Made by a program: the position numbers and the translations under genes. The notes beneath the pieces were generated by a model, which ran no database searches, was not told where the DNA came from, and worked only from the letters and a program-made list of their open reading frames with translations. 64,000 nt of DNA from Tubulanus polymorphus (taxonomy: Eukaryota; Nemertea; Palaeonemertea; Tubulaniformes; Tubulanidae), in assembly GCF_964204645.1 (NCBI RefSeq), contig NC_134029.1, positions 22,338,450-22,402,449 on the forward strand, read 5' to 3'. Shown here piece by piece: positions 785 to 5,300 of this stretch (its first letter is position 1; every line of letters begins with the position of its first letter).

Positions 785-1655
785 TTCCGCAATTAGGAAA
801 TCAACGCCATTTTGAACAAAAACTTCGACTTGATGACGGAATTCTTTCTGTGTCGCTTCTTTGCCCAATCCGCTGAGATACGTAGGGGTTTGTGATAGAC
901 CGCCAGCAACCAATGCATCGCCTTCAGCTGCAACGCTTTTGGCTAAATCACACGCCGCTTTGTTTATACTTCTTCCCTGAAAAATTCAAAACTCGTTTTA
1001 TAAAAAATGCAGATTTTGCAGATAATCTCGCAATAATGTGCAATAATAAATAAATAAATCCCTAGTACGGTAATTGCGTACAGAATATTTATCTTGGGCA
1101 ACATTGCCACGGTTTTGAAGTTTGTCATCGCTTGCGTAAAAAGTGAATGCTTGCATAACATCAGAACCTGCCCTCAAGAACTCCCTGTGAAGCTGACGAA
1201 CTGAAAATCAAGAAATCATGCATTGAGCATTCTGGAAATAACAAAGATTACCCAAACGACAGCACTAAGCAAATTCTGGCTGAACTCTTCAAGCCCATGA
1301 TCAATAAATTTAAAATGATATTTTTATTGATTAAGCATAACATCCATCCATACATAGAACTGTAGTAGGATCCATTGCTCTATCACAGGCACTACACAAA
1401 CTAACCTGCTTCAGGGTGTTCCACACAAGCCTCTGGGGTCCAAGGCCCTGCTTTTACATAACCTCTTTTTTCAAGGGCAAACACAAATCCACCATCACCA
1501 ATCACTGGGCCTTCAGCCAACCTTTCTAAAATCCCTTTCTGTGAAGAGAGGAGAGAGACAGAGATACATTGACATTTGGATTGCAGAGAACAAAATGGCC
1601 ATCATCCATCTAAACACTAAGCGTGAAGCAAGAATAAAGTACCTACCTTAGACAT
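785..1655 (-). CDS. BHMT: Betaine-homocysteine S-methyltransferase, 5' part (partial)
   Basis: BHMT transfers a methyl group from glycine betaine to homocysteine, giving methionine and dimethylglycine; it is a cytosolic zinc enzyme with a TIM-barrel fold. Coding exons on the minus strand are 1655-1647 (Met-Ser-Lys), 1538-1406, 1200-1082 and 976-785, all with GT-AG borders and compatible phases (453 bp, 151 residues). Recognisable segments are [43 protein letters not shown] and [17 protein letters not shown], collinear with vertebrate BHMT residues of about 1-155 out of 406. The zinc-binding cysteines lie in the C-terminal part, which is not in the window. Either the next intron is longer than 784 bp or the gene is truncated; the first is more likely. 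It is divergent from the DMGDH gene that uses its product. Confidence 0.93.
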
Positions 1656-2353
1656 AGTTGGTGTCTTCTGATTTCCTCAACTTGAAATTCACAACAATGA
1701 TTTGATTGTAATGACCAGCTTCCTTCTTTTGAAAATCACCCAAACCAGCTCAGCATTTATACTACGAATTAGATCAGGTCAATATGCATTACTTATCATG
1801 TAGGTTGAATAGAATGCGTTGGATCAACACAAAAACACGATTAACAGCCTCAAATGAATAATTCTAAAACCTGAATAGTGATAAATATGGATTAGTTTAG
1901 AGAAAACATGCATCAATTCTATTAATCTATATGTCTATGAAGCATTTGTGAATTAAGAATGTTTGTTTACATCCAACCTGCCACCCCTTCAACATGAAAA
2001 TGCGTGGAACTACGACGTGTTATTGGTCTATTTCATTGATTGTGCGAACTCCCACTGAACTCCAAGTTGATGTTCAGTGCTTCTTTGTAAAATGTATCAC
2101 ACTAAACCAGTGCATTGAACTAGTTTTGAGTGCAATGAACTGACAATTTGAGCAATTCAATTTTTGAAAAGTCTGCTTTTAGATATATTGGAAATTTTGA
2201 TCAAGTATAGCAGAGCGTAACAGACAATTCGGCGGGGCGGCTTATGAATAACGGATCAGCTTGGAACGAACCACGTTTCAATTGTTGACAATTTAATCCG
2301 ACAGAATAATAAATACTAGAAAACCGGTTGGTAGTGGTAAAATATCAACAACA
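1656..2353. promoter_or_regulatory. Shared intergenic region between divergent BHMT and DMGDH-A start codons
   Basis: Only 698 bp separate the BHMT start codon (minus) from the DMGDH-A start codon (plus), so both promoters and 5' leaders must lie here unless upstream non-coding exons exist. No clear TATA box was identified. The segment at about 2239-2271 (core GAATAACGGATCAGC) is related to 9205-9238 upstream of DMGDH-B (core GAATAACGTAACAGC). This indicates that some promoter-proximal DNA was duplicated with the gene. A bidirectional promoter is inference. Confidence 0.55.
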
Positions 2354-5300
2354 ATGCTGAGCTGTGCGAGGAACGTGGGAAGGCCCAAGCGGCTGAAAGT
2401 GCCCTGGGCGCAAGTGTCATCATTTGCATCATCATCACCATCAGACAAACAGACATCAGGAAAAAGGTAAGCATTGCTCACAATAAATCAATATCAATGA
2501 TACACCACAGTCTGAATACTGTCGGATGCCTAAAAACTTCATACTGTGTATTACGTAAGATTGTAATGAAATCGTTGACTTCGTTGGTTGAATCATGAAA
2601 TTTCAATAGACCCGAGGTTCCCTAGGTTTTATCTTAATCTATCATAAAATATCATAATATCGATTAGCCACAATGCTGACTAATGTGTTGGATGCCTAAA
2701 AACTTAATTTTCAACACCTTAATAAAACTTTTGAAACAGGTTTTTCTTGAATGAATCATAAAATTTAATAAAGCTAAGACCCTGAGATTCATTTTTTTCC
2801 AATAGACCGTGTTAAAACGAATTCCATATCATTACACCATTTCTTGGACCTTTAATTAAGAATCTTGGATAAATTGAATAATTATGGCTTAATTAATTAT
2901 TTTCACAATCAATTCAATTGGGGTGAATATTTACTAAGGATGATCTTTGTTTAAGCAGTTCGTCCTTCAATCCAGTTTTATTTGAATTGGGTCGAGTCAA
3001 TCCAGTTTTTCCGGGTCGCGTAAGATAATGATTAAAACTTTGGACCTATTTGCCAGGTTGTTTTCTCACGAGTCCACTTCATAACCGGTTGGTACAAAGA
3101 TTGAAAAACCGCTTCTATCAGGAGCCGTGTGAGTTTTTCTTATCAGACCCGTTCACTGATAAATCGCATTGTTTGGCCGACTGTTAGATAGATCCAGTTT
3201 GAAATGTGGTGCCAAAAAGAGTGCATTGAGAAACCAGATAATATCTGACCAAAGTTTGAATGTCTGATTAGGCCTATATCACTATTTATGTTATTAAGTC
3301 AGTCCTACTTGTACCTAATCTCTAACTATGTTATCTGAGGAAAACAGTACCGTATGAGCCCTAGGTCTACCTTTTCATTCAATTGATCAAACTCTGGCCT
3401 TCAACGAACCTTGTCATTTCTTCTCTTGTATCTATCAGTATCTTTATCATTTTCCGTAAGATTTGGAGTAATTAGTGAGAACGATTATTCTACGGATGAG
3501 TCTAGAAGTTCAGAAGTACAGTCAAACCCCGATATGCTGCTCTCTCATTTACCGCCACCCCCGCCTACCGCCGGGTTTTCTCAATGTACATCTCTATACG
3601 AATACATCGTAAAACACCCCCGATATGCCGCCATACTCTCTACACCGCCAAAATCATTCTGCACCGATGTGGGCGGTACATTGGGGTTGACTATACAATC
3701 AAAATATAACTTACACTCAAGAGACACATCCTCTCATTTGTATAAATAGTATTATGTATTATGAATAGAGCCATAATAAATGCGCATTCTAGTTAAATTA
3801 ATGATGGACCTTTAACTTTTGTGCCCTGGGTGATTAATATTGCATGAGGTGATAGAATACTTCATGCTTGTTTCCAAATGACAAATAGTTCATCTATGCA
3901 TCCATAATTTTCATTATGTCTGACTAGGCAGTTAATCGACATGATATCCCTATTGTTATGATGTCATAGTAGAACTTCATTACAACAAACTTCAGGGAAC
4001 TTGAACATCCCTTTCAATGAACAACAGGGGACCAGAAAATATACATCCACTTGATCAAATGGCCATACCCGGTAAATCACCACTGTATTTACAAGTTTGC
4101 CATGATGTTTGTATTATATTTTCTCCAGTGAGCACAAGCTGACTAAACGCCTGCACCAGGATGCTGAAACAGTGATCATCGGTGGAGGATGTGTCGGAGT
4201 CAGTTTAGCGTATCATCTCGCTAAAGCCGGTATGAAAGATGTAGTTCTGTTAGAGAAAACTGAATTGACAGCAGGATCAACATGGCACGCTGTAAGGACC
4301 GGTACTAAAAAAGTGCCAACTTACCATCTGATCTCTATACAGACTTCGATAACATTTCTCAACATTTGATGCGATCATTTCCTTTGTTGAAGAACCAACC
4401 TCGCGCATACAGTATCTGAAATGTAAAAATATCCTTAAATAATTTCAGGCTGGTCTCACAACCTATTTTCACCCTGGAATTAACGTAAAAAATATCCATT
4501 ACTATGGTTTGAATCTTTATAAGACACTAGAAGAAGAAACTGGACAGGTAAATAAGATGCTCCCTAGAAATTACCCCTTCGTTATTGAGTCTTTTACGAC
4601 AATTCATTAAAATATAATCTTCAGGCCGTCAGTTTCCATCAACCTGGTAGTTTGAGACTGGCTAAAGTCCCGGCAAGAATGGATGAATTTCGTTATCAAA
4701 TGCAACGCCAAGGATGGAATAAAGCTGAACAATGGTTGATGAACGAAGATGAAATACACAAAATTCATCCATTACTGAATATGGACAAGGTAAAATGCAT
4801 TTCTAAAAGCCTTTTAAAAGTTAACTGAATGTAATGGTAATGGTAATGGTTCTTGTTGCAGATTCTAGGCGGTCTGTTCAACCCAGGGGATGGCCATATT
4901 GACCCGTATTCTTTGACAATGGCATTGTCGATAGGAGCACGAATGTACGGAGCCGAGATCTACCAGGGGGCGCCGATAGACGGGTTGAAACAGAAAGAGG
5001 ACGGAACATGGGACGTAGAAACACCACATGGAACGCTACGAGCTAAACGAATCGTCAACGCTGCAGGTTTGTCAAACGCATGATAAACTATTAACTGACT
5101 GGTGAATCCATAGAAAATGATTGAGTATTCTTATTCAACAGGATTCTGGGCGCGTGAGGTTGGAAAAATGGTAGGAATTGATTTACCTTTAGTTCCAATT
5201 CACCATCAGTACATCGTGACAGATACGATAAAAGAAGTAGCCGAACTAGAACATGAGGTGCGTATTTCATTGTAGTGCATTTCATCTGTATCCCTTGCAG

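What the first reader, a model, noticed from the sequence alone, without database searches (positions are those of the whole stretch)
785..2466. BHMT and DMGDH are head-to-head, as in vertebrates
The sequence shows the first four exons of BHMT on the minus strand, divergent from DMGDH with 698 bp between start codons. From memory, human DMGDH and BHMT2/BHMT lie adjacent on 5q14 with DMGDH divergent from BHMT2. These genes encode consecutive steps of betaine catabolism, so retention of the pair in a distant invertebrate would be an ancient functional gene pair, possibly kept by a shared promoter.
Basis: partly seen in the sequence, partly recalled or inferred. Interest (0 to 1): 0.7.

Follow-up and report, generated by a model that had tools for sequence, protein, structure and literature searches.

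The report
Divergent BHMT and DMGDH gene pair
Two genes for consecutive steps of betaine breakdown sit back to back, 698 bases apart, in an unnamed invertebrate genome, and are neighbours in vertebrates too, so this is probably an old pair kept together, although a shared switch has not been shown.

Summary
BHMT exons 1-4 lie on the minus strand (1655-785), DMGDH starts at 2354 on the plus strand, and 698 bp separate the start codons. Both genes are full-length and conserved: BHMT is 400 aa, 70% identical to a solved BHMT; DMGDH is 868 aa, 1288 bits against solved DMGDH. Held papers list DMGDH, BHMT2 and BHMT together in human, pig and chicken. Common descent is favoured, not proven: of five single-locus markers of that vertebrate neighbourhood, three map to this chromosome (C5), 18-21 Mb away, and two to C12. 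New here: a tandem second DMGDH copy (9297-14089) carries the DMGDH-side 405 bp of the intergenic DNA, not the BHMT side; at least 15 BHMT-like paralogues lie elsewhere, 0 of 15 beside a GCV_T-domain gene; SARDH (name recalled) is about 130 kb away. No other animal genome could be searched, the organism is unidentified, and there are no transcript data, so "ancient" and "shared promoter" remain inferences. It is a good candidate for a known class, ancient divergent gene pairs.

The parts
1647..1655 (-). BHMT exon 1 (MSK), start codon at 1655-1653
   Evidence: spliced translation
1406..1538 (-). BHMT exon 2
   Evidence: aligned to PDB BHMT
1082..1200 (-). BHMT exon 3
785..976 (-). BHMT exon 4; exons 5-9 continue left of the window to C5:22336758
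1656..2353 (.). 698-bp region between the two start codons; candidate bidirectional promoter (35% GC, CpG o/e 0.74 against 0.99 for the window; one GGGGCGG box at 2234)
1949..2353 (+). DMGDH-proximal 405 bp, also present upstream of the second DMGDH copy
   Evidence: blastn blocks at E=4e-6 and 5e-4 in the same order; global score 127 against 2.4 +/- 14.7 (max 48) in 200 Markov resamples, 260 of 343 aligned bases identical
2354..8375 (+). DMGDH copy a, 16 exons, 868 aa (exon 1 2354-2466)
8912..9296 (+). upstream DNA of DMGDH copy b, homologous to 1949-2353
9297..14089 (+). DMGDH copy b, tandem duplicate, 16 exons of the same coding lengths, 868 aa (stop codon follows at 14090-14092), 92% aa identity to copy a

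Best explanation
This is the orthologue of the vertebrate DMGDH / BHMT(2) neighbour pair, inherited as a divergent pair from the common ancestor of this animal and vertebrates. It was kept together because the short intergenic DNA serves both genes (a shared promoter, or two promoters with interleaved elements), so that betaine demethylation (BHMT: betaine + homocysteine to dimethylglycine + methionine) and dimethylglycine oxidation (DMGDH: dimethylglycine to sarcosine) are switched on together, for instance when a marine animal must dispose of betaine at low salinity. Shown: both genes, orientation, 698-bp gap, tandem second DMGDH with a copy of the DMGDH-side upstream DNA, shared chromosome with three of five markers of the vertebrate neighbourhood. 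Inferred: common descent of the adjacency (about 0.65). Inferred and weaker: shared or interleaved control as the reason it was kept (about 0.55 given descent). That the animal is marine is also inferred.
For: Gene models and 698-bp gap. Vertebrate adjacency in held papers. JMY/WHAMM (C5:3.99 Mb), AP3B1 (C5:3.59) and TBCA (C5:1.73, one 39-residue exon at 35 bits) on the same chromosome; 3 of 5 single-locus markers, binomial P=0.007 for C5's share of the assembly; one of two SERINC loci at C5:23.63 Mb. The three are 18-21 Mb off, and a sulfatase-signature search (for ARSB) has 0 hits in the 199 kb held, so local order is scrambled while the pair is adjacent. 0 of 15 BHMT-like paralogues lie beside a GCV_T-domain gene; the paired copy is 70% identical to a solved BHMT. 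Function fits: in a coral, two BHMT homologues and homologues of DMGDH and SARDH rise under low salinity (PMC6381741, passages). Precedent: Uox-DNase2b is a head-to-head pair sharing a bidirectional promoter, seen in nearly all chordates, a hemichordate and Lingula (PMC9208542, passages).
Against: No third lineage was examined, so convergence is not excluded. 2 of 5 single-locus markers (CRHBP, DHFR) map to C12, not C5, and the human positions of four of the five are recalled. Markers on one chromosome do not show that the adjacency itself is old. Divergent neighbours are common: 25% of neighbouring genes in amphioxus (PMC6292497, passages), so orientation alone is weak evidence. DMGDH copy b has about 400 bp of the upstream DNA without the BHMT side, so the DMGDH promoter may be separable. 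CpG o/e in the gap is below the window mean, and of eight promoter words tested only the GC box exceeds resamples, and copy b lacks it. [quoted passage not shown] No transcript start data.
Confidence: 0.36

Rival explanations
1. The adjacency is ancestral but passive: it has simply not been broken, because breaking a 0.7-kb interval without harming either gene is rare. There are two independent promoters and no co-regulation.
For: DMGDH copy b carries only the DMGDH-side 405 bp and not the BHMT side, as two abutting promoters would allow. No CpG enrichment, and seven of eight promoter words at chance level or absent.
Against: JMY, AP3B1 and TBCA lie 18-21 Mb away on the same chromosome, so shuffling has been strong. 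Co-induction of the pathway in a coral favours some common control.
Confidence: 0.29
2. Convergence: the two genes became neighbours independently in vertebrates and in this lineage, by chance or by selection for clustering of betaine genes.
For: SARDH, the next step, is also within about 130 kb on C5 (name recalled), which could mean gathering of pathway genes. 2 of 5 markers are off C5.
Against: It needs the same rare adjacency twice (and the same orientation, if the recalled vertebrate one is right). 3 of 5 markers on C5. CHDH, the first step, is on C3, not gathered. SARDH is a paralogue of DMGDH, so their linkage may be a relic of tandem duplication.
Confidence: 0.3
3. Inherited operon: BHMT and DMGDH came together from bacteria.
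For: 1 of 80 bacterial DMGDH-like loci (L052) has a BHMT-like gene directly downstream.
Against: 79 of 80 gave no BHMT-like match in the DNA held (tblastn E 1e-3, phmmer E 0.01), and the one is head-to-tail, not divergent.
Confidence: 0.02

Closest known systems
Vertebrate DMGDH-BHMT2-BHMT locus (human 5q14.1, pig chr 2, chicken Z)
   Same: BHMT next to DMGDH; divergent orientation with DMGDH (recalled).
   Different: Here one BHMT and two tandem DMGDH copies; the papers seen name one DMGDH and, in human and pig, two BHMT genes. Flanks here are an ankyrin-repeat gene (FEM1-like, recalled) and a PF01883 gene (CIAO2A-like, recalled), not ARSB and JMY.
Uox-DNase2b head-to-head pair (PMC9208542, PMC10517255; passages)
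   Same: Divergent pair with a metabolic enzyme, shared between a brachiopod, a hemichordate and chordates.
   Different: There a bidirectional promoter is stated and many species were mapped; here neither has been done. BHMT and DMGDH are consecutive steps of one pathway.
Putatively ancestral bidirectional promoters counted in amphioxus (372; PMC6292497, passages)
   Same: A short divergent arrangement presumed ancestral.
   Different: Whether this pair is among the 372 was not checked; supplements are not readable here.

Membership tests
Betaine-homocysteine S-methyltransferase (BHMT) | Full-length match to solved BHMT, far above methionine synthase and other homocysteine methyltransferases | tested here: met
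   627 bits over residues 2-388 against 66 bits for the next family; PF02574 over residues 15-306
Betaine-homocysteine S-methyltransferase (BHMT) | Zinc-ligand cysteines (in NCHFDP and GGCCGFE; role recalled) | tested here: met
   Both motifs present in the spliced protein and aligned
Betaine-homocysteine S-methyltransferase (BHMT) | Use of betaine as methyl donor | not testable with these tools
   needs enzyme assay
Dimethylglycine dehydrogenase (DMGDH) | Best match to solved DMGDH rather than other FAD/GCV_T enzymes | tested here: met
   copy a: 1288 bits against 327 for dimethylglycine oxidase
Dimethylglycine dehydrogenase (DMGDH) | DAO + FAO_M + GCV_T + GCV_T_C domain order | tested here: met
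   shown by Pfam for copy b; copy a was not scanned with Pfam but is 92% identical over the same length
Ancient head-to-head pair (orthologous in vertebrates and invertebrates) | Same two genes are neighbours in both | tested here: met
   here; vertebrates by passages of three papers
Ancient head-to-head pair (orthologous in vertebrates and invertebrates) | Same divergent orientation in both | tested here: inconclusive
   divergent here; vertebrate orientation is recalled only
Ancient head-to-head pair (orthologous in vertebrates and invertebrates) | Present in intermediate and outgroup lineages | not testable with these tools
   by their descriptions the collections hold no other animal genomes; nothing on it in the listings of the five paper searches that name BHMT with DMGDH or synteny
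Ancient head-to-head pair (orthologous in vertebrates and invertebrates) | Chromosome-scale linkage with the vertebrate neighbourhood | tested here: inconclusive
   7 marker families tried; 5 single-locus: 3 on C5, 2 on C12; SERINC on C8 and C5; COMP no match
Bidirectional promoter | Start sites less than 1 kb apart | tested here: inconclusive
   start codons 698 bp apart; true start sites unknown
Bidirectional promoter | Both transcripts depend on one shared element | not testable with these tools
   needs CAGE or reporter assays

The most novel reading that the evidence does not exclude
The divergent BHMT-DMGDH pair, with SARDH about 130 kb away, is the surviving core of a betaine-to-glycine gene neighbourhood of the bilaterian ancestor. 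It is held together by one osmotically controlled element in the 698-bp gap, and the tandem DMGDH copy with its captured half of that gap is a natural dissection of it.
Probability: 0.12. Interest if true: 0.65.

Novelty: new member of a known kind. Interest (0 to 1): 0.42.

Why it matters
Animals rarely keep enzymes of one pathway next to each other (general knowledge). A pair that stayed divergent and adjacent over bilaterian time while its chromosome was reshuffled would be a clean test of whether shared regulatory DNA holds gene order. The local DMGDH duplicate, which has one half of the intergenic DNA, offers a built-in control.

Tried and rejected
Rejected as origin of the animal pair.

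Markers: seven families were tried. A thrombospondin marker (PF11598) gave no match anywhere, controls included, and is uninformative. SERINC has two loci, C8 and C5. Both are left out of the 5-marker count. ARSB was sought only by one sulfatase motif in the 199 kb held.

A second gene pair, BHMT-like beside a GMC oxidoreductase on C1, looked like choline dehydrogenase + BHMT. The CHDH-like gene is on C3 (552 bits on a 392-aa piece; the curated cut-off for the whole protein is 605), and the C1 enzyme scores 84 bits on joined exon pieces, so this was dropped. The sigma-70 scan does not apply to animals and is not used. Motif scan of the gap: of eight words only the GC box exceeds 1000 Markov resamples, and the aligned stretch of copy b lacks it, so no weight is put on it.

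Literature: 10 searches, some with long lists of which only the first 5-20 were shown. None of the listed titles or abstract beginnings reports BHMT-DMGDH in head-to-head order or sharing a promoter. Eleven papers were opened, passages only; the main texts of two papers on head-to-head pairs, PMC2812507 and PMC3815023, name neither gene. Supplements and most subscription papers, where lists of conserved pairs would be, are not readable here. PMC1487180 is not held.

The vertebrate orientation, first marked as tested, is now marked inconclusive.

Full report
Observation. BHMT exons 1-4 lie on the minus strand at 1655-1647, 1538-1406, 1200-1082 and 976-785. The rest of the gene lies left of the window, to C5:22336758. 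The 9-exon gene codes for 400 aa. DMGDH starts at 2354 on the plus strand and has 16 exons and 868 aa. The gap between start codons is 698 bp. BHMT matches PDB BHMT at 627 bits and is 70% identical over 388 residues to one such chain. DMGDH matches PDB DMGDH at 1288 bits.

What else is there. A second, complete DMGDH lies directly downstream (9297-14089), with the same coding exon lengths, 91.6% nucleotide and 91.8% amino-acid identity, NG86 dN 0.043 and dS 0.275. Exon identities range from 83% to 98.6%, while 11 of 15 introns give no blastn match at E 0.01. That pattern suggests patchy gene conversion, so dS is not a clock. Of 809 columns compared with the PDB chain, the copies differ at 65: copy a alone agrees with the chain at 27, copy b alone at 14, neither at 24. 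Copy a is the more conserved one.

The intergenic DNA. Blastn finds two blocks of the gap upstream of copy b in the same order and almost the same spacing (E=4e-6 and 5e-4). With the limits set from those blocks, the DMGDH-side 405 bp (1949-2353) aligns to 8912-9296 with a global score of 127 against 2.4 +/- 14.7 (max 48) in 200 Markov resamples, 260 of 343 aligned bases identical. The BHMT-side 293 bp has no counterpart: local score 45 against 57.7 +/- 7.9. The duplication therefore seems to have broken inside the gap. This shows that a DMGDH copy could be founded with only the near half of the gap; it does not show that BHMT does without that half. GC is 35%, CpG o/e 0.74 (window 0.99). Of eight promoter words, a GGGGCGG box at 2234 occurs in 0.5% of 1000 resamples; CCAAT, TATA, E-box and HNF1-type words are at chance level, and GABPA, NRF1 and YY1 words are absent.

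Vertebrate comparison. Held papers give human 5q14.1 BHMT, BHMT2 and DMGDH in about 200 kb (PMC4740183, passages). A pig table lists LHFPL2, ARSB, DMGDH, BHMT2, BHMT, JMY, and further HOMER1 to SERINC5 (PMC10741191, passages). A chicken table lists BHMT2 and DMGDH under one Z region (PMC10954189, passages). The divergent orientation in human is recalled. Seven marker families of this neighbourhood were sought in the genome. Five are single-locus: TBCA, AP3B1 and JMY/WHAMM on C5 at 1.73, 3.59 and 3.99 Mb, and CRHBP and DHFR on C12. The human positions of TBCA, AP3B1, CRHBP and DHFR are recalled. 3 of 5 on a contig holding 9.3% of the assembly has P=0.007. SERINC has one locus on C5:23.63 Mb and one on C8; COMP gave no match. 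The window is at C5:22.34-22.40 Mb, so the three C5 markers are 18-21 Mb off. This is the pattern expected if an ancestral chromosome was kept but shuffled, with the pair held together; a re-made adjacency is not excluded, because markers on one chromosome do not date the adjacency.

Paralogues as an internal control. Hits covering the BHMT N-terminal exon give 15 BHMT-like loci besides the C5 gene: 11 on C4 (19.85-20.71 Mb) and one each on C61, C3, C1 and C9 (a lower bound by the tool's own note). They are about 38-65% identical per exon. The 14 GCV_T-domain matches fall in five places: the two window copies, SARDH (C5:22.207 Mb), PDPR (C3:9.546 Mb) and C31 (the names SARDH and PDPR are recalled from sequence features). 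So 0 of 15 paralogues have a DMGDH-type neighbour, within the sensitivity of that search.

Pathway context. SARDH, the next enzyme, is about 130 kb left of the pair, with at least a PGK exon, a soluble guanylate cyclase gene and an ankyrin-repeat gene in between. CHDH is on C3. The SARDH linkage may be a relic of the duplication that made DMGDH and SARDH, or chance. In a coral, BHMT, DMGDH and SARDH homologues are induced by low salinity (PMC6381741, passages), which gives a plausible reason for co-regulation. Human eQTL data are mixed: two variants affect BHMT, BHMT2 or DMGDH in fat and muscle, none in liver or kidney (PMC4740183, passages).

Bacteria. 1 of 80 bacterial DMGDH-like loci has a BHMT-like neighbour, head-to-tail, so the pair is not an evident operon relic.

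Base rates. 25% of neighbouring genes in amphioxus are in bidirectional arrangement (PMC6292497, passages), and 5% of neighbouring pairs in human are head-to-head (PMC2812507, passages). Orientation given adjacency is thus not surprising; the adjacency of two consecutive pathway enzymes is.

Verdict. Common descent of the pair is the best reading, at about 0.65, with shared or interleaved control as the likeliest reason for its retention (0.36 in all) and passive retention close behind (0.29). The kind is known: ancient divergent pairs such as Uox-DNase2b (PMC9208542, passages). I saw no report of this pair as such in the listings of the ten searches named in Tried and rejected, but lists in supplements were out of reach.

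Noticed in passing
window 9297-14089: Tandem second DMGDH copy, intact, with patchy exon identity (83-98.6%) and mostly unalignable introns, as from gene conversion; 10 sites change residues that copy a, the solved DMGDH chain and the pieced SARDH share.
   Followed up: yes
G000 C4:19.85-20.71 Mb, C61, C3:20.69, C1:3.44, C9:6.65 (loci L100-L102): At least 15 BHMT-like paralogues about 38-65% identical per exon to the C5 gene; 11 lie in a C4 cluster, several with identical hit scores and in both orientations, which could be recent segmental duplication or assembly error. Three of the 15 were fetched.
   Followed up: partly
L005 (C5:22203500-22212500): SARDH-like gene (name recalled) about 130 kb from the BHMT-DMGDH pair, so three consecutive betaine-to-glycine enzymes are loosely linked.
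   Followed up: partly
L105 (C3:11264000-11267000): CHDH lies in one open frame (739 aa within the piece held) whose N-terminal part reads like a HAD-type phosphatase (by eye, not tested): a possible phosphatase-choline dehydrogenase fusion.
   Followed up: no
L100, L103 and L104 (C1:3441087-3448089): A BHMT-like gene lies directly downstream of a GMC oxidoreductase that does not look like CHDH, with a partial second BHMT-like copy at about C1:3441087-3441263 (by eye).
   Followed up: partly
L052:12395-13651: In one Pseudomonadota MAG an open frame with a BHMT-like match follows a DMGDH-like gene head-to-tail, starting within about 34 bp of the end of that match.
   Followed up: no
window 17587-28988: Two very long open frames (878 and 2918 aa) with no Pfam match; the second has a repeat like TTSPLEEQTTENQETTEENTS.
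   Followed up: no
G000 C31:22694-24358: GCV_T-domain exons, perhaps the aminomethyltransferase gene, on a small unplaced contig.
   Followed up: no
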